This document shows positions 407 to 59,841 of a stretch of 64,000 nucleotides of DNA, piece after piece. Origin of the DNA: Heliocidaris erythrogramma (taxonomy: Eukaryota > Echinodermata > Echinoidea > Camarodonta > Echinometridae); contig CM046853.1 of NCBI GenBank assembly GCA_025617745.1, forward strand, positions 38,055,065 to 38,119,064. The letters are read 5' to 3'. The first letter of the stretch is position 1. Every line of letters starts with the position of its first letter. A program made the translations under genes and the position numbers. The notes beneath the pieces were generated by a model. That model was given only the letters and a program-made list of their open reading frames with translations, had not been told where the DNA came from and did not search any database.

Positions 407-691
407 GAGAAACCCGCAGCCGTGGTCCCCGCCGTCCAACTGGTGCAAAAGTGAAACCGCGATACGATTCCTTGGGTGTTGAGTGGGAAGAACCTGAAGG
501 TGAAGACGTGGATGGATACAGACTGGAAGTTGGAACTCCCTCTAATCCTCGCCAGTTTACAAGGGACTATGAACCTGGCACAACAAGTGCTGATGTCACA
601 GGTTTAACACCAGATACAGATTATCAAGTCAATCTAGTATCTAGATCCAGATCAGGAGACAGTGAACCTGTAAGAAGAAGAGCTAGAACAA
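407..691 (+). CDS. Fn3 exon 1: class A, unit 1
   Basis: 285 nt, six more than the other class A exons; the extra codons are in the linker (GPRRPTGAKVKPRYDS). Strand B reads VEWEEPEG, strand C DGYRLEVG, tyrosine corner TPDTDYQV, end SGDSEPVRRRART. Donor A|GTGAGT at 692. As the most diverged class A copy it fits an older unit. Confidence 0.93.
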
Positions 692-929
692 GTGAGTGCT
701 CTCCATTTTCCTTCTTTTTTATATTGTATAATGGCAGCAGGATAGCATGTGTTATTTGTTATTTGGATGTGTCAACAGTTTCTCTTTCTCTCTTATGATA
801 CATTAAATATGTAATAATCTTGCTTAAAACATTCCCAACATCTTAGATATGTTAATGTGTGTTTTATTAAATGGATTAATCATATATTTGTGGAAATGTA
901 ATACAATGCTTTTAACCTTTGTCACTAAG

Positions 930-1214
930 GGCAAACCAGACGTTCACAGCGCCCCCAACAAGTTGGAGCGAGTTCATCAAGTCCTGAATCCATTGATGTA
1001 AACTGGCAAGCACCAAGAGATGACAGCATTACCGGATACAGAGTAGATGTTGGGATTCCATCTGATCCACGAAGAGCCTTTTCTCAGCGATACCCTGCTA
1101 GAACAACAAGGGCTTCTGTTCCAGGCCTACAAGAAAACTCTGAATACCAAGTCAGTGTAGTTTCCACCTCAGCATCTGGAGAGAGTGAACCTGTGAGAAA
1201 ATCTGTCAAGACAC
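930..1214 (+). CDS. Fn3 exon 2: class B, unit 1
   Basis: 285 nt with no internal ATG, so an ATG-based gene finder would miss it. The reading frame is open between acceptor CTAAG and donor C|GTAAGT. The linker QTRRSQRPQQVGASSSS is basic and Ser-rich. Strand B is IDVNWQAP, strand C TGYRVDVG, tyrosine corner ENSEYQV, end SGESEPVRKSVKT. The usual Pro two residues before Tyr's Thr/Ser position is replaced (QENSEY). Confidence 0.9.
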
Positions 1215-1538
1215 GTAAGTATGATACATGTATTTGATTTTTCTTTGTGATTAAGTTTCCTCTTTACATTAACTGCTTCTGGTGAAATGACCGATTCATT
1301 TGAATTTTGAGAATTTAAATATCAAAAGTGCCAATCCCAATCTTTTTGCACTGTTTGACTTTATCTTTGACTTGTGATCACCCCTGAAATGTAATTGGTT
1401 ATATGAATTCTTTTGCTGAACCCTTTTATTGATTGAAAATAGTTAGACAATGAGGCACTATTTAAAGTCATTGTCATTTAGTATTAAGCCCTTTTGCTGT
1501 GATGAATGTGAATTTCTTCTTGACATTATGTATTACAG

Positions 1539-1829
1539 AGGCCGGAGACACTCGTCGCCCTCCAAGTCCAAATGGCATGCGAGTGAGGGAAGGCATTGAG
1601 ACTGCAACAGTCAACTGGGAAGCTGCATCTGGTGATGTTGATGAATATGTTGTCAACATGGGTACTGCGGACAACCCAAATCAGTTCACACAACGTGTTC
1701 CAAGTGGAAACAGAAGAAGATTTAGGCAAAACGGTCTTGAACCCGATACAGATTATCAAGTTTCTATCAACTCAGTTAAAGACGGCAGGGAAAGTGAACC
1801 TATCCAACAAGGTTTTAGGACCAGACCTA
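1539..1829 (+). CDS. Fn3 exon 3: class C, unit 1
   Basis: 291 nt. Linker RRPPSPNGMRVREG, strand B ATVNWEA, end ESEPIQQGFRTRP. Strand C has DVDEYVV where other class C copies have DVDGY, a Gly-to-Glu change next to the core Tyr. Acceptor TTACAG, donor A|GTGAGT at 1830. Confidence 0.92.
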
Positions 1830-2125
1830 GTGAGTAATTCATGTTTAATTAATTTGTTATCCATTTTTTTTGTGCGTCAAGGACATTATCATTTTCCATT
1901 GATACAGTCACCCTTCAGATTATTTAAGTTTTTCAAAGGTTTTGACATTGTAACCGAGAAGGAAATTGTGAACCAAGGGATGGTGTCTTGATATGAGACA
2001 AATACCCCTTTTGACTCCTGTTTTTGTTTGTTTATTTTATTTTGTTGTTTTGATTGCTTGAGACATATAGTGTTGTTGAATTTTTTCTGGATATATGAAT
2101 TTTGCTATTACTCTTTTGATGGGTA

Positions 2126-2611
2126 TTAACTCTTTCAGTGCCGATGGCACACACATGTATATGTGACAGATAGACTTGTCATTTTCATAAATTGCGCGAC
2201 CACAGGAAAGGTATATGGTGGTCAATGTATATCAACACTTTGAGCATAAATCAAGCATTCTAAATATATGATTATAATTATATGCTACCATAGAAAATTG
2301 CAGAGAAAATTTCAGATTTTTAAAAAAGATATTACCTTATTTCAACATTAAACAATAGTAAAATGAGAAACCAAAATATAATGGACAAAAAAGAAACTCA
2401 AATGTGATTATCAATAATCCTTATTCATAAAGTTGGGTAAATTAATGTTTGGCATCATAAAATGTGGTAATAAATTTCCTACAAGTTTTGTACACAATAT
2501 CTTGTGAAATTATAGATGGTTAATGAAGTGCACACATTTGAAAAGCAAGCATTGCTCATTTTTTGGTAACATTATGAAGAGAGCTAAACCCCTTGGCACA
2601 GTAAGAGTTAA
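2126..2611. mobile_element. piggyBac-like MITE, copy 1, with TTAA on both sides
   Basis: Flanked by TTAA at 2126-2129 and 2608-2611. The internal 478 bp begins CTCTTTCAGTGCC and ends GGCACAGTAAGAG, imperfect terminal inverted repeats. It has no coding capacity. TTAA target duplication is characteristic of piggyBac-superfamily transposition. A second, more decayed copy of the same sequence lies at 9299-9783, which confirms that it is an interspersed repeat. Confidence 0.72.
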
Positions 2612-2790
2612 TGAATTGACATGTTAAGCACCTGTGTTTAAGTTCTAAGTTCAATTCTATTTGGTGAAAACAAATCAAAATGAAAAATTAGAAGAGTAGC
2701 AAAGCACATCACAGTCATTAAAGTAGAGCATAAAAGTATTTAAGTAAAGTATATTCTGATATTTTAATATAATGAGTAGAGTAACATTTT

Positions 2791-5117: not shown

Positions 5118-5153
5118 TCATATCTAACAGGTTAAGTTTCCTTTTGCTTTTAG

Positions 5154-5432
5154 GACGAGCTCAACCTACTAGGCCCCCTACTGGTGTGAGGGTGAATACA
5201 AGATATGATTCAATGGCAGTCCAGTGGGAAGAACCTGAAGATGAGAATGTTGATGGATACAGATTGCAAGTTGGAACACCCTCTGATCCCCAGCAGTTTG
5301 TAGGGGAATACCCTCGTGGCACAGCAGTGGCTGTTGTCCCAGACTTAGACCCAGATACAAATTATCAAGTGAATCTAGTATCTACCTCCCAATCAGGAGA
5401 AAGCTCACCTGTAAGAAGGAGAGCTAGAACAA
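5154..5432 (+). CDS. Fn3 exon 4: class D, unit 1
   Basis: 279 nt. Linker TRPPTGVRVNTRYDSMAV, strand B VQWEEPED, strand C DGYRLQVG, tyrosine corner DPDTNYQV. The turn before strand G is SGESSPVRRRART, with Ser where other copies have Glu. Acceptor TTTTAG, donor A|GTGAGT. Confidence 0.93.
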
Positions 5433-6293: not shown

Positions 6294-6578
6294 GGCGAAC
6301 TCGACGCCCAAAGCGCCCCCAACGGACAAGAGCAAGTTCATCAAGTCCTGACTCCATTGATGTCACCTGGCAAGATCCAGATGATGAAAATGTTGATGGA
6401 TACAGGGTGGATGTTGGAACACCATCCAATCCTCGGTCAAAGTTCTCTCGACGAATCCCTCGTGGAACTAATTCAGTCAATGTCCCAGGCTTGGATGCAG
6501 ATTCGGATTACCAAGTCAGTGTATCATCAACCTCACCATCAGGAGATAGTGAACCTGTAAAGAAGACTGCAAGCACAC
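6294..6578 (+). CDS. Fn3 exon 5: class E, unit 1
   Basis: 285 nt. Polybasic linker RTRRPKRPQRTRASSSS, strand B IDVTWQDP, strand C DGYRVDVG, tyrosine corner DADSDYQV. It ends SGDSEPVKKTAST, whereas other class E copies end VRKSVKT. Donor C|GTAAGT at 6579. Confidence 0.93.
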
Positions 6579-8417: not shown

Positions 8418-8708
8418 AGAGGCGTGGTCCTGGGGGCATCTCTCCACCAAATGGCATGCAGTTGAATGAAGAACCATCTTCTGTCAGAGTTAACTGGGGT
8501 GCATCAGGCAGTGACAATATCGACGGATACACCGTCAGTATAGGAACTCGAAACAACCCAAATCAGTTCACTGAGAATGTTCCCAAGACAAGTAGAAGCT
8601 TCAGGAAAAAAGGCCTGCGTCCAGGTACAGATTATCAAGCTTCTGTCAAGGCATATAACGCAGATGGAGAAAGTGAACCTGTTCAACAAGGTTTTAGGAC
8701 AAAGCCCA
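8418..8708 (+). CDS. Fn3 exon 6: class F, unit 1
   Basis: 291 nt. Linker RRGPGGISPPNGMQLNEEPS, strand B VRVNWGAS, strand C DGYTVSIG, tyrosine corner RPGTDYQA, end GESEPVQQGFRTKP. Acceptor TGTAG, donor A|GTGAGT. The most diverged class F copy (TENVPKTSRSF against TQF.Q.VPKTTTSL in later units). Confidence 0.93.
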
Positions 8709-10216: not shown

Positions 10217-10495
10217 AGCGAACTCGAGGTCCCAAGCCCCCAGTCAACACCAGGGCAAATACTCGCTACGATTCAATAGCAGTAAGATGGGATGAACCTG
10301 ATGATGAAAATGTTGAGGGATACAGACTTGAAGTTGGGACTTCATCTGAACCTAACCAGGCCTCTTGGAATTTTCCTCGGGGCACACAAGATTTCACTAT
10401 TCCAGACCTAGATCCAGATACAGATTATGATGTCAAATTGTATTCCACTTCACCATCAGGAGATAGTGAACCTGTCAGACGAAGAGGAAGAACAA
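10217..10495 (+). CDS. Fn3 exon 7: class G, unit 1
   Basis: 279 nt. Linker RTRGPKPPVNTRANTRYDS, strand B VRWDEPDD, strand C EGYRLEVG, a class-specific second Trp (ASWNFPRG), tyrosine corner DPDTDYDV, end SGDSEPVRRRGRT. Acceptor TTTAG, donor A|GTGAGT. Confidence 0.93.
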
Positions 10496-13156: not shown

Positions 13157-13435
13157 GACGCAACCGACGCCCAAGGCGCCCAGCCCGTGCTAAGGTGAAC
13201 CCAAGCTCTAATTCTATGGACATAAGCTGGGATGATGCAAAAGGAGACAATGTTGATGGATACAGGGTGGATGTTGGAACACCATCTAATCCACGACAGT
13301 TCTCTCAGCAATATCCTCGTGATACAACGAGGACCACTGTCCCAGGTCTAGACCCAGACACAGAATATAAAGTCCAAATAGTCACTAATGCAGCAGGCAG
13401 AGAGAGTGAACCATTAACGAAGACTGCTAGGACAA
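13157..13435 (+). CDS. Fn3 exon 8: class H, unit 1
   Basis: 279 nt. Linker RNRRPRRPARAKVNPSSNS, strand B MDISWDDA, strand C DGYRVDVG, tyrosine corner DPDTEYKV. It ends RESEPLTKTART; the turn has lost the usual SGE and reads AGRESEP. Acceptor TCCAG, canonical donor A|GTAAGT, unlike the GC donors of classes H3 and H4. Confidence 0.93.
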
Positions 13436-14047: not shown

Positions 14048-14356
14048 GAGCGCCTGAGTCTAGACCAAGTACAGGAGGAGCTGCAAACTCTCCTCCAAAT
14101 GGGATGCAAATCAGGGAAGGTTCTGATAGAGCAACAGTCAACTGGGAAGCTGCAACCAATGATGTAGATGGCTACATTGTCAACATGGGCACTGAGGATA
14201 ACCCAAATCAGTTCACACAGCGCGTTCCTAGTACAGACAGGAGGCGGTTTAGGCAAGATGGGCTTGAACCTGAAAGAGATTATCAAGTTTCTATCAAATC
14301 GTTTGATTCAGAGGGGGAAAGTGAACCTATTCAACAAGGCTTTAGGACCAGGCCTA
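14048..14356 (+). CDS. Fn3 exon 9: class I, unit 1
   Basis: 309 nt, the longest class. The long Gly/Ser/Pro linker SRPSTGGAANSPPNGMQIREG is class-specific. Strand B ATVNWEA, strand C DGYIVNMG, tyrosine corner EPERDYQV (Arg for Thr), end GESEPIQQGFRTRP. Acceptor CATAG, donor A|GTAAGT. It closes the first nine-domain unit. Confidence 0.93.
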
Positions 14357-15120: not shown

Positions 15121-15399
15121 GGCGGACCGGCAGCCCCCAGCCCCCGACTGGTACCAAAGTGAACAGACGATATGATTCATTGGGTGTTGAATGGGAAGAA
15201 CCTGAAGGAGATGATGTGGAAGGATACAGATTGGAAGTTGGAACTCCCTCTAATCCCCGCCAGTTTACAAGGGACTATGAACGTGGTACAACAAGTGCTG
15301 ATGTCCCAGGTTTAACACCAGATACAGATTATCAAGTCAATCTAGTATCTAGATCCAGATCAGGAGACAGTGAACCTGTGAGGAGGAGAGCTAGAACAA
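15121..15399 (+). CDS. Fn3 exon 10: class A, unit 2
   Basis: 279 nt. Linker GSPQPPTGTKVNRRYDSLG becomes the standard class A linker from here on. Strand B VEWEEPEG, strand C EGYRLEVG, then DYERGTTSADVPGLTPDTDY. Acceptor TTCAG, donor A|GTGAGT. Confidence 0.94.
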
Positions 15400-15813: not shown

Positions 15814-16098
15814 GGCCAACCCGACGTCCACAGCGCCCCCAACGCACTAGAGCAAGTTCATCAAGTCCTGATTCAATCGATGTCAACTGGGAAGCACCAA
15901 GAGATGAAAGTGTTGATGGATACAGGGTGGATGTTGGAACGCCGGCTGATCCACGTAGAGACTTTTCAAGGCGATTTGGACCTGAAACCAGTAGAGCCTC
16001 TATTCCAAATCTACGCCCAGACTCTGAATACCAAGTCAGTGTAGTATCTACTTCACAATCTAAAGAGAGTGAACCTGCAAGAAAGTCTGTTAGAACAC
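15814..16098 (+). CDS. Fn3 exon 11: class B, unit 2
   Basis: 285 nt. Linker PTRRPQRPQRTRASSSS, strand B IDVNWEAP, strand C DGYRVDVG, tyrosine corner RPDSEYQV. The turn is QSKESEP (Lys replaces Gly), end ARKSVRT. Acceptor TGCAG, donor C|GTAAGT. Confidence 0.94.
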
Positions 16099-16333: not shown

Positions 16334-16627
16334 GAGATGATGGTACTAGATCCCGCCCCTCCCGTCCAAACGGCATGCGAGTAAGGGAAGGTGTAGAGTC
16401 AGCAACAGTAAACTGGGAACCTGCTTCCAATGATGTTGATGGCTACATTGTCAACATGGGCACAGAGGCCAACCCAAATCAGTTCACACAGCGAGTTCCA
16501 AGTAGAGACAGAAGAAGGTTTAGGCAAGACGGACTTGAACCTGATACAGATTATCAAGTTGCCATCAAATCATTTGATTCCAGCGGAGAAAGTGAACCTA
16601 TTCAACGAGGTTTTCGGACAAGATCTA
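16334..16627 (+). CDS. Fn3 exon 12: class C, unit 2
   Basis: 294 nt, one codon longer than class C1 and C5 in the linker (GTRSRPSRPNGMRVREG). Strand B ATVNWEPAS, strand C DGYIVNMG, tyrosine corner EPDTDYQV, end GESEPIQRGFRTRS. Acceptor CACAG, donor A|GTGAGT. Confidence 0.93.
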
Positions 16628-18149: not shown

Positions 18150-18428
18150 GACAACCCCAAGCCACGAAACCCCCAACTGGTGTCCGAACGAACCCAAGAT
18201 ATGATTCCATGGGAGTCCAGTGGGAAGAACCTGAAGATGAGAATGTTGATGGATACCGACTGGAAGTTGGAACACCCTCTGATCCTCGTCAGTTTGTAGG
18301 GGAATATGATCGTGGCACAACGGCTGCCAATGTCCCAGACTTAGACCCAGAAACAGATTATCAAGTCAATCTGGTATCAACATCTCCTTCTGGAGACAGT
18401 GAACCTGTAAGAAGGAGAGCTAGAACAA
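18150..18428 (+). CDS. Fn3 exon 13: class D, unit 2
   Basis: 279 nt. Linker QPQATKPPTGVRTNPRYDS, strand B VQWEEPED, strand C DGYRLEVG, then GEYDRGTTAANVPDLDPETDYQ. End SGDSEPVRRRART. The acceptor is the purine-poor TTTAAG; AAG acceptors are weaker than CAG/TAG. Confidence 0.93.
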
Positions 18429-19062: not shown

Positions 19063-19347
19063 GGCGAACACGACGTCCAAAGCGTCCCCAACGCACTAGA
19101 GCAAGTTCATCAAGGCCTGATTCCATTGAAGTCAACTGGCAAGACCCAGATGATGAAAATGTTGATGGATACAGGGTGGACGTTGGAACTCCGTCTAATC
19201 CTCGGTCAAAATTTTCTCAGCGAATCCCTCGTGGAACCAATTCTGTCCGTGTCCCAGGCCTAGACGAAGACTCAGACTACCAAGTTAGTGTAGTATCCAC
19301 CTCACCATCAGGGGAGAGTGATCCAGTAAGAAAGTCTGTGAAAACAC
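19063..19347 (+). CDS. Fn3 exon 14: class E, unit 2
   Basis: 285 nt. Linker RTRRPKRPQRTRASSSRPDS, strand B IEVNWQDP, strand C DGYRVDVG, tyrosine corner DEDSDYQV. End SGESDPVRKSVKT, with Asp for Glu in the turn as in all later class E copies. Acceptor TTAAG, donor C|GTAAGT. Confidence 0.93.
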
Positions 19348-19562: not shown

Positions 19563-19853
19563 AGAGGCGTAGTCCTAGAAGAGTCTCCCCACCAAATGGC
19601 ATGCGCTTGAATGAAGAACCTTCTGCTGTAAGTGTTAACTGGGGTGCATCAGGCAGTGATAACGTCGATGGTTACGTTGTCAACATAGGGACCCCTGACA
19701 ACCCAACTCAGTTCTCTCAAAATGTCCCCAAGACTACTACAAGCTTAAGACAAAAGGGTCTTCGTCCAAATACAGATTACCAAGTTTCTGTCAAGGCACG
19801 TGGCCCAGATGGGGAAAGTGATCCTATTCAACAAGGTTTTAGGACAAAGCCCA
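19563..19853 (+). CDS. Fn3 exon 15: class F, unit 2
   Basis: 291 nt. Linker RRSPRRVSPPNGMRLNEEPS, strand B VSVNWGAS, strand C DGYVVNIG, tyrosine corner RPNTDYQV, end GESDPIQQGFRTKP. Acceptor TTTTAG, donor A|GTGAGT. Only 215 nt separate it from exon 14. Confidence 0.93.
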
Positions 19854-21912: not shown

Positions 21913-21989
21913 ATCACTTTTTGACTGAAGTAAAGTGTAGTTAGGGATCATAGAAGTTTGTTCACTTTGTTTATACAATATTTTTTTAG

Positions 21990-39603: not shown

Positions 39604-39882
39604 AACGACCTCAAGGCCCTGCAGCTCCAGTTAATGCCAAGGCGAATACACGCTATGATTCGATAGCAGTCAAATGGGATGAACCTGATGATGAAAATGT
39701 TGACGGATACAGACTTGAGGTTGGGACTCCATCTCAACCTAACCAGGCTTCTTGGAAATTCCCTCGGGGCACAAGAGATTTCACTATTCCAGATTTAGAT
39801 CCAGATACAGATTATGAAGTCAAATTGTATTCCACATCACCATCAGGAGATAGTGAACCAATCAGAAGGAGAGGAAGAACAA
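39604..39882 (+). CDS. Fn3 exon 25: class G, unit 3
   Basis: 279 nt, open throughout but with no in-frame ATG, hence easily overlooked. Linker RPQGPAAPVNAKANTRYDS, strand B VKWDEPDD, strand C DGYRLEVG, second Trp ASWKFPRG, tyrosine corner DPDTDYEV, end SGDSEPIRRRGRT. Acceptor TTCCAG, donor A|GTAAGT. Confidence 0.93.
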
Positions 39883-40105: not shown

Positions 40106-40384
40106 GACGCAACCGACGTCCAAAACGTCCAGCTCGTTCAAAGGTGAAGCCAGGCTCTGATTCTATGGATATAAGTTGGGATGAAGCAAAAGGAGACAAC
40201 ATTGATGGGTACAGGGTAGATGTTGGAACTCCTTCTAACCCAAGACAGTTTACGCAACGATTTCCTCGTGGAACAACAAGGGCTTCTTTCCCAGGCCTTG
40301 ACCCAGACACAGATTATCAAGTCAGTATAGTATCCACATCAGCAGATGAAGAAAGTGAACCCTTAACAAAAGCCGCTAGGACAG
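40106..40384 (+). CDS. Fn3 exon 26: class H, unit 3 (GC donor)
   Basis: 279 nt. Linker RNRRPKRPARSKVKPGSDS, strand B MDISWDEA, strand C DGYRVDVG, tyrosine corner DPDTDYQV, turn SADEESEP, end LTKAART. The frame ends ACA G and is followed by GCAAGT, not GTAAGT. Spliced to exon 27 this gives Gly (G+GT) at the junction. Confidence 0.92.
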
Positions 40385-41402: not shown

Positions 41403-41711
41403 GTGCACCTACGTCCAGGCCAGGTACAGGAGGAGCAGCAAACTCTCCTCCAAATGGAATGCAAATCAGAGAAGGTTCTGATAGAGCAACAGTCAACTGG
41501 GAACCTGCTACCAATGATGTAGATGGCTACATTGTCAACATGGGCACTGAGGACAACCCAAATCAGTTCACACAGCGCATTCCTAGTACAGACAGGAGGA
41601 GGATTAGGCAAGATGGGCTTGAACCTGAAACAGATTATCAAGTTTCTATCAAGTCATTTGATTCAGAGGGGGAAAGTGAACCTATTAAACAAGGCTTTAG
41701 GACCAGGCCTA
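41403..41711 (+). CDS. Fn3 exon 27: class I, unit 3
   Basis: 309 nt. Linker PTSRPGTGGAANSPPNG, strand B ATVNWEPA, strand C DGYIVNMG, tyrosine corner EPETDYQV, end GESEPIKQGFRTRP. Acceptor CAACAG. The donor is A|GTACGT, weaker at position +4 than the GTAAGT of its sisters. Confidence 0.93.
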
Positions 41712-42206: not shown

Positions 42207-42485
42207 GGCGAACTGGCAGCCCCCAGCCCCCAACTGGTACCAAAGTGAACAGACGATACGATTCTTTGGGTGTTGAATGGGAAGAACCTGAAGGAGCTGA
42301 TGTGGAAGGATACAGATTGGAAGTTGGAACTCCCTCTAATCCCCGCCAGTTTACAAGGGATTATGAACCTGGCACAACAAGTGCTGACGTCCCAGGATTA
42401 ACACCAGATACAGATTATCAAGTCAATCTAGTATCTAGATCCAGATCAGGAGACAGTGAACCTGTAAGAAGGAGAGCTAGAACAA
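42207..42485 (+). CDS. Fn3 exon 28: class A, unit 4
   Basis: 279 nt. Standard class A; distinguished by EPEGADVEGY (Ala where others have Asp). Acceptor TTTAG, donor A|GTGAGT. Starts the fourth nine-domain unit. Confidence 0.94.
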
Positions 42486-42723: not shown

Positions 42724-43008
42724 GGCCAACCCGGCGTCCACAGCGTCCCCAAGGTACTAGAGCAAGTTCACCAAGTCCTGATTCAGTAGATGTCAACTGG
42801 GAAGCACCAAGGGATGACAGTGTTAATGGATACAGGGTGGATGTTGGAACACCAGCTGATCCACGTAGAGACTTCTCAAGGCAATATGGACCTGAAACAA
42901 GGAGAGCCTCTATTCCAAACCTACGCCCAGACTCACAATACCAAGTCAGTGTGGTATCCACCTCACCATCTGGAGAGAGTGAACCTGCAAGAAAGTCTGT
43001 GAAAACAC
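42724..43008 (+). CDS. Fn3 exon 29: class B, unit 4
   Basis: 285 nt. Linker PTRRPQRPQGTRASSPSPDS (Gly replaces one linker Arg), strand B VDVNWEAP, strand C NGYRVDVG, tyrosine corner RPDSQYQV, end SGESEPARKSVKT. Acceptor TCCAG, donor C|GTAAGT. Confidence 0.94.
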
Positions 43009-43862: not shown

Positions 43863-44159
43863 CCAAAGAAGACGATAGTACTAGACGCCCCTCCCGGTCA
43901 AATGGCATGCGAGTGAGGGAAGGTGTAGAGTCAGCAACAGTAAACTGGGAACCTGCAACCAATGATGTAGATGGCTACATTGTCAATATGGGTACTGAGG
44001 CCAACCCAAATCAGTTTACACAGCGTGTTCCTAGTAGAGACAGAAGGAGGTTTAGGCAAGATGGGCTTGAACCTGATACCGATTATCAAGTTTCCATCAA
44101 ATCATTTGATTCAGAAGGGGAAAGTGAACCTATTCAACAGGGCTTTAGGACAAGATCGA
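43863..44159 (+). CDS. Fn3 exon 30: class C, unit 4
   Basis: 297 nt from the first AG (43861-43862), or 291 nt from 43869 with the AAAG acceptor, as in exon 21. Linker STRRPSRSNGMRVREG (Ser in place of Pro in the PNG motif), ATVNWEPA, DGYIVNMG, EPDTDYQV, GESEPIQQGFRTRS. The last bases and the following 225 nt of intron are identical to exon 39 and its intron. Donor A|GTAAGT. Confidence 0.9.
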
Positions 44160-44459
44160 GTAAGTGTTTAAGCTTCTTTTGCCAAATATATCAGCTTTTA
44201 TTACGGAAAGTATTAGGTATTACACTAACCTGATTTCCTCATGTATCAAGTTTGCATTATCATTAAGGAAAGCATTATGTAGAAAGCAGGATTGATGCAA
44301 TTTCGCTATTGTAGAAGAAAGCTCTATATCTATGTATATGTACTGTGTTTGTAAATAGATTTGCAACTGGATTTTAACAACATTATTTTTCCTTTTGTAA
44401 AAGAAAGCACTGTGTATTGTCATATGTACATGTATATACGGGGTCTGCTCGCTAGTCAT

Positions 44460-45115
44460 AAGGACCGCTATTCATAAAAAAAAAATATTCATAAGGACCG
44501 CTATTCATAATAAGACATAAGGGTTGCTATTCATAAGGGTAATTATTCATAAGGACCGCCATTCATAATAAGACATAAGGATCGCTATTCATAATATGGA
44601 AAGAGGGTCGCTATTCATAATACTAAATCAGGGTCGTTAATCATAAGGGTCCCTATTCATAATACGAAAATAGGGTCGCTATTCATAAAGGTCGCTATTC
44701 ATAAAGGTCAATATTCATAAGGGTCGCTATTCATAATCGAAGAAGAGGGTCGCTATTCATAATCACAAAAGAGGGTCGCTATTCATAATCACATAAGAGG
44801 GTCGCTATTCATAATCGGAGAAGAGGGTCGCTATTCATAATCACAAAAGAGGGTCGCTATTCATAATCACAGAAGAGGGTCGCTATTCATAATCGGATAA
44901 GAGGGTCGCTATTCATAATCACAAAAGAGGGTCGCTATTCATAATCACATAAGAGGGTCGCTATTCATAATCGGAGAAGAGGGTCGCTATTCATAATCAC
45001 AAAAGAGGGTCGCTATTCATAATCGGAGAAGAGGGTCGCTATTCATAATCACAAAAGAGGGTCGCTGTTCATAATCACAGAAGAGGGTCGCTATTCATAA
45101 TCAAAGAAGAGGGTT
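44460..45115. repeat. 26-bp minisatellite, left arm of the foldback element
   Basis: At least 15 regular copies of GAGGGTCGCTATTCATAATC plus a variable six-base end (ACAAAA, ACATAA, GGAGAA, ACAGAA) from about 44740; before that the units are shorter and irregular (GGACCGCTATTCATAA). Variant ends alternate, suggesting multi-unit expansion steps. Confidence 0.88.
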
Positions 45116-46599
45116 GTCATTTAAATCAAATAAGAAAGGGATATGGAGGAAGGACAACCCAAGGCCCAACGGTATTGTATTTAAGAAAGCTCTATACAAT
45201 GCATTTCCGGTTTTTGTCAAATATATCCCTATTTTCTAAAAAAAGTGAACTATATTTATCAATACTCCCCACACTTTGAAAGGCGCTTTGCCAGTGCCTT
45301 AAGAATTAAAAAAACGATGTCTAATCCATACATCTACGTGGGAGGAGAGGACCCCCCCCCCCCATCCACACACCCACATACACGCAGACATGTGCTTTGT
45401 TTTTAATATTGGAGTGTCATTGCCACACCTATTTTAGAGTTAGGGGAAGTACTGGTTGTCTATTTATGTACCCTTTTCGTTCTTTCTTTTTTCTTTTTCC
45501 TCCTCTCTCTCTCTCTCTCTCTCTCTTCCTCTTTCCTTCCTTTTCCAGCTTCTTGTTTCTTTGTTTCTGCATGGTTTTCTGCAAGACATGGACCTCTTGC
45601 TTGTACTCTTATTTCCTTATGTATACTGTTTACGTAGATTTATCATGGAATAATTATTGTCATGCCTCTTTATTCTCAATGTGTTAATATATTTTTGATA
45701 CATGTGCATTAATATATTTTTCTGTATTCATTCTTATCCATCACGTGCAATTTTTTATGCTTGAAATTGGGAAATCAGATTGTAACACAATTTGTATCCT
45801 TGTTGCATGACAATAAATGAATCATTGAATCATCCAGATCCTCCCGTTTCTCAACTCCTGTGAAGACCTAATCCTTAGCCTTTATCTCAAGTTCCAGCAA
45901 TCGTCCATTTGGGGGGAGATGAGGGGAAAGTTGGGCGGGGAGGGGGGGGGGGGGTGGGATTCTCGTAGGGGGTAGTTGTCCTGGAGATTAGTTGTAGGGG
46001 TAGTTGTCCGGATACGGGCTTAGAAATTGCCGCGAAAAATTTGTTTTCGTTTTTATTTTGGGGTGGGATAGTAATATTTTCATAATACGTGATTTTAGTA
46101 ACGTACAATTCATTGGCATCTACCGTTTTTACAGTGTGCCCCTGTTTATGGGCATGGATGGGAATGAAGTATGCCCTCCCACGGTTGGGACTTTCAAATT
46201 TCCCCGAGTTAAAAATCACCTCTCAGAGCATTTGAGTGCATGTGCTTTCATGGTAATTACTAACTTATTAATTTCATTATATTCTTTGAAATCTTTATTT
46301 CGGTCTTCCTTATCATAATCTTAACAAAAATCATGACAAAAATTATCACCATGTTGATCGATCGTGATCCTATGAATAATAATCATCATGGTCATCCTCC
46401 TCCTCCTCCTGATCATATTATTTGATCATGTCATTTATTGAAGGTGAATTATTGCGGGGGGATGATACAAGCCAATCCTACAGGCCACCCCCCCCCCATT
46501 ACAAGGGCATGCGCATCATGTATTTTCTATGTTTGTTTGATCTTAATTCAATTCTATCAAATTTATTCCCATTTCTTTATACTGTAAAGCATATTGGTT
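45116..46599. other. Interior of the foldback element
   Basis: Low-complexity tracts: C-run at 45351-45363, (CT)n at 45499-45527, G-rich tract at 45906-45956, CTC repeats near 46397. Short ORFs here have no conserved motif. No transposase recognised. Confidence 0.6.
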
Positions 46600-47445
46600 G
46601 TATGTAAACAACCACAGGACCAACGGCTTTAACCCTAATAGAGCCGGGTTATTTAGACCCATCTCACAGCCGGGGGTGGGGGCTGATTCCGCCCCCTAAG
46701 ATCTCGGCCGTCCACCGCGCATTCGCAACGAAAATCGGCACACACGTCGCCAACCACGTAATCTACAAAACTGTATAGTCAATTTCTCCGAAAAATTTAA
46801 TAACTAATTAATTATGCTAATTTATGCATAAATTAATTTGCTCTAATTAATTAAATAAAGCCCCAAAACTGCTAATTTTTGGTATAGAGACTCTTTGTCA
46901 GATTCTGATCAAATAAACTGGTAAAAATCCTTTTTTTCTTATGTTTTTTATTGTTTTTTCGATGGAATTTGTCGGCGACACTATTTTAATCCTAAACAAC
47001 ATAAAATTAATTGTTTTTAAACAGTAAAAGTAAAAATAATGAAACATTTATGAATTTTAGCTGGAAACACAATTTGGATTGGATTTGTACACGAAATCAC
47101 GTTTTTGAACAATTTTGGGTCTGACATGCACTTACGAAATGTTGGGTAACTCCGGAACCGCACGCGCGGACATCACAAATTTGGTCTCAAAAGTTGCGCA
47201 AGACTTGAAAGAAAAAAGTAGTGAAGCGGCGTGGTGACTGCTTTTCGCGATGCGAACATATTACGCGAAACGTCGAGGGGGGATCCGCCCCCCGGGCCTA
47301 TTAGGGTTAAGTCCTCTCCGAGGGACTTGAGGTTAATGCCTTACCAAAGGACATGAGTGCATCCTGGTTTCAAACACGCATCCTTCAGTTACAAATCCAC
47401 TGTTCGACCTCTGAGCTATCTCGCCTATCTCTGAGGATTATGGAC
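46600..47445 (-). mobile_element. tRNA-derived SINE, minus strand, split by a MITE
   Basis: On the minus strand 47440-47350 reads GCGAGATAGCTCAGAGGTCG (A-box-like), a TGT position in the anticodon loop (GATTTGTAACTG) and GTGTTTGAAACCAGG (B-box-like), as in tRNA-Thr-derived SINEs. Its 3' part continues through GTCCCTCGGAGAGGAC and, beyond the inserted MITE (46629-47310), AGCCGTTGGTCCTG. It is not a functional tRNA gene: arms are mismatched. Confidence 0.6.
46629..47310. mobile_element. piggyBac-like MITE (674 bp) inserted in the SINE at TTAA
   Basis: TTAA at 46629-46632 and 47307-47310 flank 46633-47306. The termini are CCCTAATAGAGCCGGG and its inverted partner CCCGGGCCTATTAGGG. Just inside both ends are G/C-rich 'GGGGGCTGATTCCGCCCCC'-like and 'GGGGGGATCCGCCCCCC' palindromes. 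AT-rich non-coding centre. TTAA and CCCT ends are piggyBac hallmarks. Confidence 0.8.
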
Positions 47446-47937
47446 ATGATAGAACAACACCTACTACAGCACCCCCCCCCCCGCCACCGCACACAGACTA
47501 TGCCATTTATGAATTGCTTTGACGAAATTTGTCAGTACTATGTGCTTGTACCGAAACAAGATGGGTAGAATAGCGCAACGTGATCGGACTGATGGAGGGG
47601 GGGGTGACACAGGCGTAGCCAGGATTTTTCAATATGGGGCGTTTGATAAGCACTCTTTGCGTGCTCCCCAGGGGTATGGATGCAGGGAGGGGGAGATTCC
47701 CCTATAGAGTTGTTAGGGGTATGTAACTATATGGTTTTCCCCCTCCCGCGCGAAGTGCGAAAGCTCTGAAAGCTTTAAGGGGTGTATTTGTTTCATCGCC
47801 CGTCCCCATATTGGCTCGACACAGCCGTGGGGTGTCTAGATCCCATCCAATATTATTATTTTTGTTCTTTCATATCTGAGTGTTCATTGAACAATGAAAA
47901 TCATATTACAATATTTGACAAATAATCCTAACCCTAA

Positions 47938-48425
47938 CCTATTCTTCGATTATGAATAGCACCCCTCTTTCGTGATTATGAATAGCGACCCTCTTCTTTG
48001 ATTATGATTAGCGACCCTCATCTTCGATTATGAATAGCGACCCTCTTCTCTGATTATGAATAGCGACCCTCTTCTCCGATTATGAATAGTGACCCTCTTC
48101 TCCGATTATGAATAGCGACCCTTATGATTAACGACCCCGATTTGGTATTATGAATAGCGACCCTGTATCTGTATTATGTATAGCGACCCTTATGACTTAT
48201 TATGAATAGCGGCCCTTATGAGTAATGACCCTTTTCTTCGATTATGAATAGCGACCCTCTTCTCATATTATGAATAGCAATCCTTATGAATAATGCTCCT
48301 TATGAGTTTATGAATAGTGACCCCCTTTTCGCTTTATGAATAGCGACCCTACAGGTATAGGAAATTACACGTTATGACTAGCGGTCCTTATGAGCCACTG
48401 ATCCTTATGACTAGCGGTCCTTATG
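47938..48425. repeat. 26-bp minisatellite, right arm of the foldback element (inverted)
   Basis: Copies of GATTATGAATAGCGACCCTCTTCTC, the reverse complement of the left-arm unit, degenerate towards the outer end (GTTATGACTAGCGGTCCTTATG). Flanked by CTCGCTAGTCATAAGGACC in inverted form near 48414-48434. Confidence 0.88.
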
Positions 48426-48550
48426 ACTAGCGAGGTTACCCCGTATGTACTGATTACTTTTCATCTATCTTTGGAGATAAATTAAAGACTTGAATTTATA
48501 TTGAATATTAATTTGAATAATTGATCTTAGAAATATTATTTTGCTTTCAG

Positions 48551-48829
48551 GACGACCCGAAACTACAAAACCCCCAACTGGTGTCCGAACGAACCCAAGA
48601 TACGATTCCATGGGAGTCCAGTGGGAAGAACCTGAAGATGAGAATGTTGATGGATACCGACTGGAAGTTGGAACACCCTCTGATCCTCGCCAGTTTGTAA
48701 GGGAATACGATCGTGGCACGACGGCTGCAAATGTCCCAGACTTAGACCCAGAAACAGATTATCAAGTCAATCTGGTATCGACATCTCCATCTGGAGACAG
48801 TGAACCTGTGAGAAGGAAAGCCAGAACAA
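48551..48829 (+). CDS. Fn3 exon 31: class D, unit 4
   Basis: 279 nt, identical to exon 22 except one synonymous base (Ala GCA against GCC). The preceding 130 nt of intron are also the same. Acceptor TTTCAG, donor A|GTAAGT; the donor-side intron diverges within about 10 nt. Confidence 0.95.
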
Positions 48830-49858: not shown

Positions 49859-50143
49859 GGCGAACACGACGTCCAAAACGCCCCCAACGCACTAGAGCAA
49901 GTTCATCAAGTCCTGATTCCATCGATGTCGCCTGGCAAGATCCAGATGACGAAAATGTTGATGGATACAGAGTGGATGTTGGAACACCATCTAATCCTCG
50001 GTCAAAGTTCTCTCAGCGAATCCCTCGTGGAACAAATTCAGTCCGTGTCCCAGGCCTCGAAGAAGATTCAGGTTACCAAGTCAGTGTAGTATCCACCTCA
50101 CCATCAGGAGAGAGTGATCCAGTAAGAAAGTCTGTGAAAACAC
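49859..50143 (+). CDS. Fn3 exon 32: class E, unit 4
   Basis: 285 nt. Linker RTRRPKRPQRTRASSSS, strand B IDVAWQDP (Ala for Thr), strand C DGYRVDVG, tyrosine corner EEDSGYQV, end SGESDPVRKSVKT. Acceptor TAAAG, donor C|GTAAGT. Confidence 0.94.
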
Positions 50144-50412: not shown

Positions 50413-50703
50413 AAAGGCGAAGACCCAGGGGTGTTTCCCCTCCAAATGGCATGCGGTTGAAAGAAGAACCTTCTGCTGTGACAGTTAACTGGGGTCCATC
50501 AGGCAGCGACAACATCAATGGTTATGTTGTCAACATTGGGACCCCTGACAACCCAACGCAGTTCTCGCAAGATGTCCCCAAGACCACTACAAGCTTAAGG
50601 CAAAAGGGCCTTCGTCCAGGTACAGATTACCAAGTTTCTGTCAAGGCACGTGGCCCTGATGGGGAAAGTGATCCTATTCAACAAGGGTTTAGGACAAAGC
50701 CCA
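50413..50703 (+). CDS. Fn3 exon 33: class F, unit 4
   Basis: 291 nt. Linker RRRPRGVSPPNGMRLKEEPS, strand B VTVNWGPS, strand C NGYVVNIG (Asn replaces Asp), tyrosine corner RPGTDYQV, end GESDPIQQGFRTKP. The 269-nt intron before it shows the pre-insertion state of unit 3's 4.3-kb E-F intron. Confidence 0.94.
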
Positions 50704-54486: not shown

Positions 54487-54765
54487 AACGACCTCAAGGC
54501 CCTGCAGCCCCAGATAACACCAAGGCGAATACACGCTATGATTCGATAGCAGTCAGATGGGATGAACCTGATGATGAAAATGTTGACGGATACAGACTTG
54601 AGGTTGGGACTCCATCTCAACCTAACCAGGCTTCTTGGAAATTTCCTCGGGGCACAAGAGATTTCACTATTCCAGACCTGGATCCAGATACAGATTATGA
54701 AGTCAAATTGTATTCCACATCACCATCAGGAGATAGTGAACCTATCAGAAGGAGAGGAAGAACAA
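54487..54765 (+). CDS. Fn3 exon 34: class G, unit 4
   Basis: 279 nt. Linker RPQGPAAPDNTKANTRYDS, strand B VRWDEPDD, strand C DGYRLEVG, second Trp ASWKFPRG, tyrosine corner DPDTDYEV, end SGDSEPIRRRGRT. Acceptor TTCCAG, donor A|GTAAGT. Confidence 0.94.
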
Positions 54766-54978: not shown

Positions 54979-55257
54979 GACGCAACAGACGTCCAAAACG
55001 CCCAGCTCGTTCAAAGGTAAACCCAGGCTCTGATTCTATGGACATAAGTTGGGATGAAGCAAAAGGAGACAACATTGATGGATACAGGGTAGATGTAGGA
55101 ACTCCTTCTAACCCAAGACAGTTTACGCAACGATTTCCTCGTGGAACAACAAGGGCTTCTTTCCCAGGTCTTGACCCAGACACAGATTATCAAGTCAGTA
55201 TAGTATCCACATCAGCAGATGAAGAAAGTGAACCCTTAACAAAAGCCGCTAGGACAG
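54979..55257 (+). CDS. Fn3 exon 35: class H, unit 4 (GC donor)
   Basis: 279 nt. Linker RNRRPKRPARSKVNPGSDS, strand B MDISWDEA, strand C DGYRVDVG, tyrosine corner DPDTDYQV, turn SADEESEP, end LTKAART. As in exon 26 the end reads CAG|GCAAGT, so the intron is GC-AG. Acceptor TGTAG. Confidence 0.92.
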
Positions 55258-56726: not shown

Positions 56727-57035
56727 GTACACCTACGTCCAGGCCAGGTACAGGAGGAGCAGCAAACTCTCCTCCAAATGGAATGCAAATCAGGGAAGGT
56801 TCTGATAGAGCAACAGTCAACTGGGAACCTGCAACCAATGATGTAGATGGCTACATTGTCAATATGGGCACTGAGGACAACCCAAATCAGTTCACACAGC
56901 GCGTTCCTAGTACAGACAGGAAGAGGATTAGGCAAGATGGGCTTGAACCTGAAAGGGATTATCAAGTTTCTATCAAGTCGTTTGATTCAGAAGGGGAAAG
57001 TGAACCTATTAAACAAGGCTTTAGGACCAGGCCTA
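56727..57035 (+). CDS. Fn3 exon 36: class I, unit 4
   Basis: 309 nt. Linker PTSRPGTGGAANSPPNG, strand B ATVNWEPA, strand C DGYIVNMG, tyrosine corner EPERDYQV (Arg, as in exon 9), end GESEPIKQGFRTRP. Junction residue from exon 35's G plus GT is Gly. Donor A|GTAAGT. Confidence 0.94.
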
Positions 57036-57336
57036 GTAAGTGATGGGATCTTCATTCCTTTTCTTATTTTGCAGTTTGTTTTATGCTATGAATGTTTGAC
57101 TGTTTTTTGTTCATGGGAATCTGATAATTCCGTGTATCATGCATTGGTTATGCTTTTGAGTGACTGACTTTGTATGGAGGTAGAAACTGATTATTGGTAG
57201 ATATTTGGTGACAGATGTCATTCTCCTTTATCATTGCATCATTACCAGTGCCAAAGCATGATATAGTAATATCACTCCACCTCTTTTTCACTCTTTTAAA
57301 ATCAGTGCCCACTTTACATTTTATTCCATAATCTCC

Positions 57337-57404
57337 TGGTTTAACACCAGATGTAGCTTATCAAGTCAATCTAGTAGCTACTGCCAGATCAGGAGAAATT
57401 ATAT
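57337..57404 (+). pseudogene. Relic of an Fn3 exon (class A/D-like) inside the I-A intron
   Basis: GGTTTAACACCAGATGTAGC then TTATCAAGTCAATCTAGTAG then CTACTGCCAGATCAGGAGA aligns with the E-F strand region of class A exons (L-T-P-D-T-D-Y-Q-V-N-L-V-S-R-S-R-S-G-D). The Asp-Thr-Asp codons are altered, and it runs into TTATATAA. There is no upstream half and no donor. Unit 3 keeps the ends of the same segment with the middle deleted. Confidence 0.75.
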
Positions 57405-57522: not shown

Positions 57523-57801
57523 GGCAAACTGGCAGCCCCCAGCCCCCAACTGGTACCAAAGTGAACAGACGCTACGATTCATTGGGTGTTGAATGGGAAG
57601 AACCTGAAGGAGATGATGTGGAAGGATACAGATTGGAAGTTGGAACTCCCTCTAATCCCCGCCAGTTTACAAGGGACTATGAACCTGGCACAACAAGTGC
57701 TGACGTCCCAGGATTAACACCAGATACAGATTATCAAGTCAATCTAGTATCTAGATCCAGATCAGGAGACAGTGAACCTGTAAGAAGAAGAGCTAGAACA
57801 A
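57523..57801 (+). CDS. Fn3 exon 37: class A, unit 5 (partial unit)
   Basis: 279 nt. Linker QTGSPQPPTGTKVNRRYDS (Gln for Arg), otherwise as exon 28. Donor is A|GTGAGC, with C at +6. Acceptor TTTAG. Confidence 0.94.
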
Positions 57802-58046
57802 GTGAGCGTTTCTCATTCATTTTATTGGATTATGCAATGATAAAGAGATATGTTTAGTGTTTTGGCTTATCATCAAAGTTAGAGGCCTTTGGTGTCTCTT
57901 TTACTACACTTTCAACAATTAATAATTTTGCTTGATAGGTTCCAATTACCCTGTAATAGATTTGTGCATGATTCAATCAATGTAGAAAAGCGTTATTCAC
58001 GTATCTCTATGAAATGTTATCGATATCTTTAAATCCATTCATGCAG

Positions 58047-58331
58047 GGCCAACCCGACGTCCACAGCGTCCACAACGCACTAGAGCAAGTTCACCAAGTC
58101 CTGATTCAGTAGATGTCAACTGGGAAGCACCAAGGGATGAGAGTATTAATGGATACAGGGTGGATGTTGGAACGCCAGCTGATCCACGTAGAGACTTCTC
58201 AAGGCAATATGGACCTGAAACAAGGAGAGCCTCTATTCCAAACCTCCGCCCAGACTCACAATACCAAGTCAGTGTTGTATCCACCTCACCATCTGGAGAG
58301 AGTGAACCTGCAAGAAAGTCTGTGAAAACAC
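58047..58331 (+). CDS. Fn3 exon 38: class B, unit 5
   Basis: 285 nt. Linker PTRRPQRPQRTRASSPSPDS, strand B VDVNWEAP, strand C NGYRVDVG, tyrosine corner RPDSQYQV, end SGESEPARKSVKT. The donor is C|GTTAGT (T at +3), so unspliced RNA would read an in-frame TAG at once. It is the only GTTAGT donor in the array. Confidence 0.93.
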
Positions 58332-59033
58332 GTTAGTTTGATATCAAGTCCTAGATAAAGCTTTCATTGAAGATGTTGCAATAAATGCTGTTTTGATGTA
58401 TGATAACGCTTTATATTATGTTGTTATGCTGTTTATTTGAGAACCCAGAGCAATAAAGCATATCAATTTGATAATGGCCAGCATATTGTCACATGTTTCA
58501 CCCATTTCATCTGCTGAAAGCCAAAAAGGGCATTAACTTTGGATTAAATCATGTAAAATACATGTCTATTTAAAACAAAAAAGTTTAATTCGATAGACTT
58601 ACGTCAAAACGAGACATGCCCACTCAAGTGTAGAGAATATAAATTACCTTCATAATAGCTTTTTTCTTGTGAAATATAAACAACAGCCGAGTGTTTCACT
58701 TCATGTCTATGAGAACAACTACAACATACCAAGTATTTTGCACTGTACAAGGGTGATGCTCCAAGGCATCCACATGGATGCCTTGGCGTGAATATGATAG
58801 TGTATTGACATGTGGGCGTGTCTCCCAGACTACAATTCCGTTACATTGTGGACCAGTGAAGAAAGGTCAGTCATTTTACATCAGCTAGATCATGGTTAAG
58901 AATGTTCATAACATAAAAAGTTATATGTGTGCCTGTTTATTATTTATTTTGGAAAAAATCAGCATCTTTTTTAAAACCTATTTACATGTATGTAGCTGAA
59001 TGCCTATATGAACATGTATTTTGATATCCACAG
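58332..59033. other. B-C intron of unit 5
   Basis: 702 nt, collinear with 43009-43862 but lacking the SINE-like insert at 43395-43571. No gene. Confidence 0.6.
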
Positions 59034-59324
59034 AAGATGATGGTGCTAGACGCCCCTCCCGCCCAAATGGCATGCGAGTAAGAGAGGGTATGGAGTCAGC
59101 AACAGTAAACTGGGAACCTTCATCCAATGATGTTGATGGCTACACTGTCAACATGGGTACTGAGGACAACCCAAATCAGTTTACACAGCGTGTTCCTAGT
59201 AGAGACAGAAGGAGGTTTAGGCAAGATGGGCTTGAACCTGATACCGATTATCAAGTTTCCATCAAGTCATTTGATTCAGAAGGGGAAAGTGAACCTATTC
59301 AACAAGCCTTTAGGACAAGATCGA
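59034..59324 (+). CDS. Fn3 exon 39: class C, unit 5
   Basis: 291 nt. Linker GARRPSRPNGMRVREG, ATVNWEPSS, strand C DGYTVNMG, EPDTDYQV, and GESEPIQQAFRTRS (Ala for Gly near the end). Single acceptor CCACAG. Its 3' end and following intron match exon 30. Donor A|GTAAGT. Confidence 0.93.
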
Positions 59325-59562
59325 GTAAGTGTTTAAGCTTCTTTTGCCAAATATATCAGCTTTTATTACGGAAAGTATTAGGTATTACACTAACCTGATT
59401 TCCTCATGTATCAAGTTTGCATTATCATTAAGGAAAGCATTATGTAGAAAGCAGGATTGATGCAATTTCGCTATTGTAGAAGAAAGCTCTATATCTATGT
59501 ATATGTACTGTGTTTGTAAATAGATTTGCAACTGGATTTTAACAACATTATTTTGCTTTTAG

Positions 59563-59841
59563 GACGACCCCAAACCACCAAGCCCCCAACTGGTGTCCGA
59601 ACGAACCCAAGATACGATTCCATGGGAGTTCAGTGGGAAGAACCTGAAGATGAGAATGTTGATGGATACCGACTTGAAGTTGGAACACCCTCTGATCCTC
59701 GCCAGTTTGTAAGGGAATATGATCGTGGCACCACGGCTGCTAATATCCCAGACTTAGACCCAGAAACAGATTATCAAGTTAATCTTGTATCGACATCTCC
59801 ATCTGGAGACAGTGAACCTGTAAGAAGGAAAGCTAGAACAA
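59563..59841 (+). CDS. Fn3 exon 40: class D, unit 5, last Fn3 exon in the window
   Basis: 279 nt. Linker RPQTTKPPTGVRTNPRYDS, strand B VQWEEPED, strand C DGYRLEVG, TAANIPDLDPETDYQ (Ile for Val), end SGDSEPVRRKART. Acceptor TTTTAG, donor A|GTAAGT at 59842. A class E exon would be expected next, but the DIRS-like element occupies the rest of the window. Confidence 0.94.

What the first reader, a model, noticed from the sequence alone, without database searches (positions are those of the whole stretch)
407..59841. Nine-exon higher-order repeat of single-domain Fn3 exons, at least 4.4 copies
Forty consecutive Fn3 exons repeat with an exact period of nine (classes A-I) with no class missing or out of order: A at 407, 15121, 24750, 42207, 57523; D at 5154, 18150, 29220, 48551, 59563, and so on. 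Class identity is seen in linkers (PPTGTKVN, RRPKRPQRTR, PNGMRVREG, TGGAANSPPNG), in exon length and in junction residues. Amplification of whole nine-domain genomic blocks is a large-scale mode of Fn3 protein growth, and copy number may vary between individuals.
Basis: seen in the sequence. Interest (0 to 1): 0.9.

Follow-up and report, generated by a model that had tools for sequence, protein, structure and literature searches.

The report
Nested 3×3 Fn3 exon super-repeat
A sea-urchin-like animal carries a giant gene in which one-domain exons are arranged in blocks of nine, each block itself three triplets, and a mixed intron still shows where one nine-exon block was joined out of register.

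Summary
All 40 exons are at the stated places and 40 of 40 match Pfam fn3, with a period of nine. The array is longer: 51 exons, about -1.7 to +87.45 kb, all phase 1-1 and open, order I-(ABCDEFGHI)x5-A-E-F-G-H, found at one locus. The nine is three triplets, [IAB][CDE][FGH], the first two closest. Inner units are alike (dS 0.10-0.28), end units older (0.41-0.78). The C4-D4 intron is a chimera of the C5-D5 and C3-D3 introns, and unit pairing switches at the same C/D border: the scar of a nine-exon exchange, with signs of short conversion. The host is an echinoderm by mitochondrial code. The protein is probably a secreted, cysteine-free, sequon-free Fn3 chain, but secretion, the gene's ends and expression were not shown. 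New member of the titin/nebulin super-repeat kind. Copy number between individuals was not testable.

The parts
407..691 (+). A1 exon (single Fn3, phase 1-1)
930..1214 (+). B1 exon
1539..1829 (+). C1 exon
5154..5432 (+). D1 exon
6294..6578 (+). E1 exon
8418..8708 (+). F1 exon
10217..10495 (+). G1 exon
13157..13435 (+). H1 exon
14048..14356 (+). I1 exon
15121..15399 (+). A2 exon
15814..16098 (+). B2 exon
16334..16627 (+). C2 exon
18150..18428 (+). D2 exon
19063..19347 (+). E2 exon
19563..19853 (+). F2 exon
21442..21720 (+). G2 exon
21990..22271 (+). H2 exon
23960..24265 (+). I2 exon
24750..25028 (+). A3 exon
25228..25512 (+). B3 exon
28683..28979 (+). C3 exon (acceptor could also be 28689)
29220..29498 (+). 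D3 exon
31075..31359 (+). E3 exon
35694..35984 (+). F3 exon
39604..39882 (+). G3 exon
40106..40384 (+). H3 exon, GC donor (GCAAGT)
41403..41711 (+). I3 exon
42207..42485 (+). A4 exon
42724..43008 (+). B4 exon
43863..44159 (+). C4 exon (acceptor could also be 43869)
44160..48550 (+). chimeric C4-D4 intron: 44160-44395 = C5-D5 intron, 44386-44439 and 48443-48550 = C3-D3 intron; junction at about 44386-44395
   Evidence: 99.2% over 236 bp, 96.3% over 54 bp, 100% over 108 bp
44440..48442 (.). about 4-kb insertion inside the chimeric intron, 8-bp target repeats (7 of 8 alike), terminal inverted repeats
   Evidence: sequence read directly
48551..48829 (+). D4 exon (near-identical to D3)
49859..50143 (+). 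E4 exon
50413..50703 (+). F4 exon
54487..54765 (+). G4 exon
54979..55257 (+). H4 exon, GC donor (GCAAGT)
56727..57035 (+). I4 exon
57335..57396 (+). 62-bp fragment of an A exon inside the I4-A5 intron
   Evidence: 87% to A2 and A3, E 1.8e-13
57523..57801 (+). A5 exon
58047..58331 (+). B5 exon
59034..59324 (+). C5 exon
59563..59841 (+). D5 exon (last array exon in the window; E5 to H6 follow outside)

Best explanation
This is the middle of one very large gene whose product is a chain of Fn3 domains, one per phase 1-1 exon. SHOWN: 51 array exons with two nested periods, three and nine; unit = [I A B][C D E][F G H]; the first two triplets are closest to each other; end units are the most diverged; more synonymous than amino-acid change; homologous introns at the same place in different units; one chimeric C-D intron; and a switch of unit pairing at that C/D border. 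INFERRED: a three-domain segment (type CFI, then ADG, then BEH) was copied to a nonamer, and the nonamer was then amplified by unequal exchange in introns, with short conversions as well; symmetric phase 1-1 exons let any whole-exon exchange keep the frame. INFERRED, weaker: the product is secreted and acts as a long, cysteine-free, unglycosylated tether or matrix filament, whose repeat register matters because partners bind at three- or nine-domain spacing.
For: Anatomy: 51 of 51 exons divisible by three, phase 1-1, no stop. Periods. Class tree; triplet tree T3 100/100, T1 100/99, T2 only 61/87. Mean identity C-I 0.74, A-D 0.68, B-E 0.66 against 0.50-0.61 for their pairs with F, G or H of the same type: only the frame [IAB][CDE][FGH] makes one pair of triplets closest in all three positions, and the array starts at I0 and ends at H6, in this frame. 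dS 0.096 (units 3-4), 0.22-0.28 (other pairs of 2-5), 0.41-0.44 (unit 1 with 2-5), 0.69-0.78 (unit 6, four classes); dN/dS 0.11-0.29, and 0.29-0.44 for the single exon I0. Eight introns of block D3-C4 against D4-C5 differ by 9.2-15.2%. Chimeric intron. Pairing: I-A-B with introns, copies 4+5 100/99 and 3+4 rejected p 0.0057; D-E-F and G-H, 3+4 at 100/99 and 100/100, 4+5 rejected p 1.4e-4 and 2.1e-5. Secretion: 0 N-X-S/T in 51 exons against 38.7 by shuffling (0 of 500 as low), while the reversed motif occurs 35 times; 0 in six flanking Fn3 (4.8 expected, P 0.005); 15 (11.7 expected) in 17 titin-like Fn3 of the same genome; 0 Cys in 4876 aa; best solved relatives fibronectin.
Against: No transcript, signal peptide, transmembrane segment or chain end was found; 'one gene' rests on strand, phase and order. 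The sequon test was made after seeing the sequence, and the units are not independent (P 0.0004-0.0014 for each of units 1-5, 0.015 for unit 6). Phase 1-1 modules also occur inside cells (recall). A single recent tandem duplication predicts even divergence between D3-C4 and D4-C5; instead the tracts beside the junction differ by about 0.5-2% and the introns of the block by 9-15%, so conversion or exchange between unlike haplotypes must be added. From exons alone A-B-C does not reject units 3+4 (p 0.226); the switch there needs the introns, whose older copies align poorly. T2 is weakly supported as a clade, and H groups with B+E by position more than by tree.
Confidence: 0.8

Rival explanations
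1. Assembly artefact: two haplotypes were joined end to end, making an extra unit.
For: Units 3 and 4 are the closest pair (dS 0.096), the tracts beside the junction are nearly identical, and a chimeric intron is what a jump between haplotypes would also leave.
Against: No N in the region. Join with about 10 bp of shared sequence and a 4-kb insertion inside the junction intron. Eight introns of the block differ by 9.2-15.2%, and E-F introns measure 4334 against 269 bp. Other unit pairs differ by dS 0.2-0.8, so at most one unit could be false.
Confidence: 0.08
2. One-domain-at-a-time exon duplication, with order kept by selection alone.
For: Each exon is a separate, symmetric module that could move singly; a 62-bp A-exon scrap in the I4-A5 intron shows that small duplications occur.
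Against: Lag-1 and lag-2 identity is no higher than that of other off-period lags (0.40-0.41). Introns are homologous by position across units. The junction is nine exons out of register.
Confidence: 0.03
3. An intracellular, muscle-type giant (titin-like) rather than a secreted protein.
For: Titin A-band has the same kind of nested Fn3 super-repeat (PMC10665226, passages). Solved titin chains are among the profile's hits.
Against: No Ig-type domain among 44 other open frames in the window or in the flank frames scanned. A separate titin-like Fn3 array lies on another contig. No sequons and no cysteines, unlike that array. The best fibronectin chains score higher than the best titin chain.
Confidence: 0.15
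4. Exon bank for alternative splicing, in which different tissues choose different subsets of equivalent phase 1-1 exons.
For: All 51 exons are interchangeable in phase.
Against: The order of types is kept through all 17 triplets; mutually exclusive exons are usually side-by-side copies of one kind (recall), not seen here. No transcript data either way.
Confidence: 0.1

Closest known systems
Titin (connectin) A-band super-repeats
   Different: Titin repeats are -AC-ABC and -AC-ABC-ABC with Ig domains (same passages). Here the array is Fn3 only, a clean 3x3, one domain per exon, without cysteine or sequon, and the genome has a separate titin-like array.
Nebulin seven-domain block
   Same: Many-domain blocks duplicated as one unit; autocorrelation peak at the unit length (PMC1553488, passages read).
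   Different: Nebulin exon borders fall inside domains (same passages); here each exon is one domain. That paper gives four as the main Fn3 unit; here three and nine.
Fibronectin, tenascins and other secreted Fn3 chains
   Same: Best solved matches are fibronectin chains; phase 1-1 single-domain exons (typical of such modules by recall).
   Different: No EGF or fibrinogen-like domain was found in the flank frames scanned. Tenascin-like candidates were not found in the echinoderms searched by PMC11401434, though tenascin-like FN3 sequences such as XP_041474432 were (passages read); I could not compare that record.
Spider MaSp2 silk genes with repeated introns
   Same: Repeated exon-intron units; the authors propose that repeated introns promote unequal crossing over and homogenisation (PMC9779670, passages read).
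   Different: Silk repeats are not folded domains of several kinds (recall) and are more alike (average 93.5% in MaSp2.2, same passages); here there are nine domain kinds with introns mostly diverged.

Membership tests
Fibronectin type III domain (PF00041) | Profile match above the curated cut-off | tested here: met
   40 of 40 window exons match at E<=0.001; scores above the 25-bit cut-off were shown for A1, A2 and I3 and F1-F5. Of the 11 array exons outside the window, those shown against Pfam include F5; all 11 score 118 bits or more with the array's own profile
Fibronectin type III domain (PF00041) | Seven-strand beta sandwich | not testable with these tools
Super-repeat giant proteins (titin/nebulin kind) | Autocorrelation peak at a many-domain lag | tested here: met
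   lags 9, 18, 27 at 0.875, 0.846, 0.809; other multiples of three 0.59-0.62; remaining lags 0.40-0.41
Super-repeat giant proteins (titin/nebulin kind) | Unit duplicated as one genomic block | tested here: met
   homologous introns, chimeric intron, pairing switch at the same border; shown for one event, inferred for the older ones
Titin | Ig domains between Fn3 tandems | tested here: not met
   0 of 44 other open frames (68 aa or more, + strand, filtered) matched any Pfam family at E 0.001. Shorter frames in the window were not scanned
Titin | Kinase domain and sarcomere location | not tested
   the gene's ends were not located; no expression data
Tenascin | EGF-like domains before and fibrinogen-like domain after the Fn3 array | tested here: inconclusive
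   not among the hits of the flank frames scanned, but the gene's ends were not located
Secreted protein | Signal peptide | not testable with these tools
   first exon not found; only indirect evidence (sequon absence)
Echinoderm genome | Mitochondrial AAA read as Asn, ATA as Ile, AGA as Ser | tested here: met
   cox1 on contig C24 has AAA and ATA at positions I recall as conserved Asn and Ile (conserved positions and code tables recalled)

The most novel reading that the evidence does not exclude
A still-active, length-changing array: introns serve as exchange points that add or remove whole three- or nine-domain blocks of a secreted 'extracellular titin', so its length varies within the species, while selection bars N-glycosylation sites from every domain so that the repeat surface stays bare.
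Probability: 0.25. Interest if true: 0.68.

Novelty: new member of a known kind. Interest (0 to 1): 0.52.

Why it matters
Super-repeats in giant proteins are known, but the duplicated segments are seldom traced; PMC1553488 says that exact identification of them is difficult in most cases (passage). Here the three-domain level, the nine-domain level and a junction resolved to about ten bases are visible together, one domain per exon, so models of block duplication, exchange and conversion can be tested directly. If copy number varies, one gene would give a natural length series of a single protein filament. The complete lack of N-X-S/T, if not chance, is a simple, testable sign of how a secreted giant keeps its repeat surface.

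Tried and rejected
Rejected: basic unit of nine (lag 3 and 6 signal). Frame [ABC][DEF][GHI], because C is closest to I, not F. Unit 6 as an ancestral six-domain state, because A6 groups with A, X6 with E and I5 with I, not outside the sister pairs; so B-C-D were more likely lost. Remnants of B, C or D in the A6-E6 intron: none by tblastn (E 0.01) or blastn (E 0.001). A second array elsewhere: 52 of 52 and 55 of 56 protein matches (flanking Fn3 of this locus included) lie at this locus, the other being a weak C21 hit (the tool scores only best candidates). One simple tandem duplication of even age for units 3 and 4: does not fit the uneven divergence. Wider mosaicism (unit 5 nearest to unit 2 in G and H by dS): not supported by trees (2+5 is not in the best tree and not rejected, p 0.489). 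Led nowhere: domain scans for the gene's ends: 93 of 93 near frames (11 fn3), 65 of 65 farther upstream (one frame with ankyrin repeats), 60 of the 97 listed farther downstream (retroelement-type families only; 37 frames were not given), 118 shorter frames (two weak fn3, two other weak hits); L025-L028 were searched only with the array profile. Literature searches for this gene listed no paper that describes it as far as titles and abstract starts show; open-access full text only. Other urchins: no such collection at hand.
Full report
WHAT WAS CHECKED. The window is C1:38055065-38119064 of a 1.06-Gb assembly of 26 contigs. I took 70 kb before and 130 kb after it, built a profile from 45 open frames chosen by motif, and searched the region. 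Of 56 hits, 51 score over 100 bits and form the array; the other five score 34-56 bits and are ordinary Fn3 domains beside it, two before and three after. Exon borders were set by hand from AG/GT sites in frame. All 51 exons have a length divisible by three, phase 1 at both ends, and no stop. Donors are GT except H3 and H4, which are GC (GCAAGT). The acceptors of C3 and C4 and the donor of H6 (87448 or 87454) are ambiguous. 40 of 40 window exons match Pfam fn3.

THE ARRAY IS LONGER. In window coordinates it runs from I0 (-1698 to -1387) through five whole A-I units to A6, E6, F6, G6 and H6 (ending about 87450): 51 domains, 5.67 units, 4876 aa in the joined exons, about 543 kDa. The exon that I first labelled X6 (79513-79797) is E6: mean identity 0.885 to E and 0.685 to B. 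Unit 6 therefore lacks B, C and D, exactly three domains. Protein searches of the whole genome with E3 and I3 found this locus in 52 of 52 and 55 of 56 matches (flanking Fn3 of the same locus are among them, and the tool scores only its best candidates), so no second copy was seen.

TWO NESTED PERIODS. Mean protein identity by lag is 0.40 and 0.41 at lags 1 and 2, 0.59 at 3, 0.61 at 6, 0.875 at 9, and repeats so up to lag 27. In 2000 shuffles of the exon order the highest best-lag value (lags 1-20) was 0.615. The tree of 51 exons (only 96 columns) has three deep parts: A+D+G (100/98), B+E (99/93) with H near them, and C+F+I (100/100). Supports for classes: A 99/91, B 99/93, D 91/97, F 97/92, G 100/97, I 94/95, C only 53/49; H is split by H6 and E by X6. 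H does not group with B+E alone in this tree; its mean identities are 0.56 to E, 0.53 to A and 0.50 to B, so its place in the B-E type rests mainly on position. Closest pairs of classes are C-I 0.74, A-D 0.68, B-E 0.66. These agree only if the triplet is read as I-A-B, C-D-E, F-G-H. Joined triplets (17 rows, 286 columns) give T3 at 100/100, T1 at 100/99, and T2 at 61/87; the triplet I5-A6-E6 was set apart as a T1/T2 hybrid and falls beside T1. The array begins with the first and ends with the last domain of such a triplet.

AGE AND SELECTION. Pooled dS: units 3-4 0.096; other pairs among units 2-5 0.22-0.28; unit 1 against 2-5 0.41-0.44; unit 6 against 1-5 0.69-0.78 (classes A, F, G, H; E6, labelled X6, was not in this pool); I0 alone 0.29-0.41. 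dN/dS is 0.11-0.29 for whole units and 0.29-0.44 for the single exon I0. Outer units are older and inner ones alike, as unequal exchange within an array would give, and as reported for the titin C-zone (PMC10665226, passages).

FOOTPRINTS OF EXCHANGE. The C4-D4 intron is built of two others: 44160-44395 matches the first 236 of 238 bp of the C5-D5 intron at 99.2%, then 44386-44439 matches C3-D3 29066-29119 at 96%, then about 4.0 kb of inserted DNA, then 48443-48550 matches C3-D3 29112-29219 at 100%. The inserted DNA has 8-bp target repeats, 7 of 8 alike, and inverted ends, and its target is unbroken in C3-D3, so it sits only in this copy. This is the expected junction of a nine-exon out-of-register exchange, C next to D, in an intron, with about 10 bp aligned to both. 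It predicts that the copied block runs D3-C4 to D4-C5, and that pairing of units switches at C/D. It does: for I-A-B with their introns, copies 4 and 5 pair (100/99; 3+4 rejected, p 0.0057; introns alone 98/97, p 0.029), while for D-E-F and G-H units 3 and 4 pair (100/99, 100/100; 4+5 rejected, p 1.4e-4 and 2.1e-5). Against this: from exons alone A-B-C gives 4+5 only 78/81 and does not reject 3+4 (p 0.226), exon C has lower dS for 3-4 (0.10) than for 4-5 (0.16), and exon I taken alone resolves nothing. The sets were chosen after seeing the dS table and junction, and the outgroup introns align poorly.

UNEVEN AGE. Eight introns of D3-C4 against D4-C5 (D-E through B-C) differ by 9.2-15.2% (unaligned parts are not in these figures). 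Yet beside the junction, D3 and D4 with 108 bp of intron differ by about 0.5%, and the C4 end with 236 bp of intron differs from C5 by about 1-2%. The 3' part of exon C is also close between C3 and C5, so there only the intron part is telling. Either two short conversions were made at a break in an older C4-D4 intron, or the exchange joined unlike haplotypes. I cannot decide. A 62-bp scrap of an A exon lies in the I4-A5 intron.

HOST. Contig C24 (12,905 bp) carries cox1 with TGA as Trp and with AAA and ATA where I recall Asn and Ile to be conserved; with recalled code tables this is the echinoderm code. Large rRNA and cox1 lie on the same strand, the order I recall for sea urchins and sea cucumbers. 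Of 21 numbered large contigs I saw the length of 14, all over 37 Mb; C22-C26 are small. Twenty-one chromosomes is what I recall for camarodont sea urchins. Species not determined.

WHAT THE PROTEIN MAY DO. The 4876 aa hold no cysteine, no N-X-S/T and one histidine; Arg is 12.2%. Shuffling within exons gives 38.7 sequons for the 51 exons, and 0 of 500 shuffles is as low; the reversed motif occurs 35 times and D-X-S/T 32 times; P is 0.0004-0.0014 for units 1-5 and 0.015 for unit 6; six flanking Fn3 have 0 where 4.8 are expected (P 0.005); 17 titin-like Fn3 of contig C4 have 15 against 11.7, with 8 Cys and 7 His. The test was not planned beforehand. N-X-S/T is of no consequence outside the secretory pathway (general knowledge), so its absence points, as inference, to a secreted chain kept free of N-glycans. 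The profile's best solved relatives are fibronectin chains, then titin. Three Fn3 before and four after the array also match Pfam, so the gene probably goes on both ways; its ends were not found. 0 of 44 other filtered open frames in the window match Pfam. I therefore favour a long secreted Fn3 filament with repeating binding sites, at modest confidence, over a muscle protein.

VERDICT. Observation confirmed and extended; interpretation partly supported. The thing works like the titin and nebulin super-repeats but is not filed as titin: the Ig feature was tested and not met within the limits given. New member of a known kind, with unusually clear nesting and an unusually fresh junction.

Noticed in passing
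G000:C21:32196704-32228744 (L050 covers 32196001-32206000): Another Fn3 array on the minus strand with places about 1.68 or 2.2 kb apart; the five copies read are 99-100% identical in protein.
   Followed up: partly
G000:C4:8932442-9000182 (L048, L049): A titin-like Fn3 array (likeness to titin recalled); among 17 domains read, lags 10 and 11 are slightly more alike (0.51 against 0.44-0.48), perhaps the old eleven-domain titin period.
   Followed up: partly
window 44440-48442: About 4-kb insertion with 8-bp target repeats, terminal inverted repeats beginning GGGGT, and inner 26-bp tandem repeats near both ends; element family not determined.
   Followed up: partly
window about 60.3-63.6 kb, in the D5-E5 intron: G+C-rich stretch (0.52-0.53) with overlapping open frames on both strands; looks like a retroelement by eye; not searched.
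   Followed up: no
window 40384 and 55257: H3 and H4 use GC instead of GT donors, the other 49 array exons GT.
   Followed up: yes
window 4393-4896: Open frame of 167 aa resembling the C-terminal part of a LINE reverse transcriptase by eye; no Pfam match at E 0.001.
   Followed up: partly
window 21717-21913: Perfect 98-bp tandem duplication starting in the last bases of exon G2 and repeating its donor region (read).
   Followed up: no
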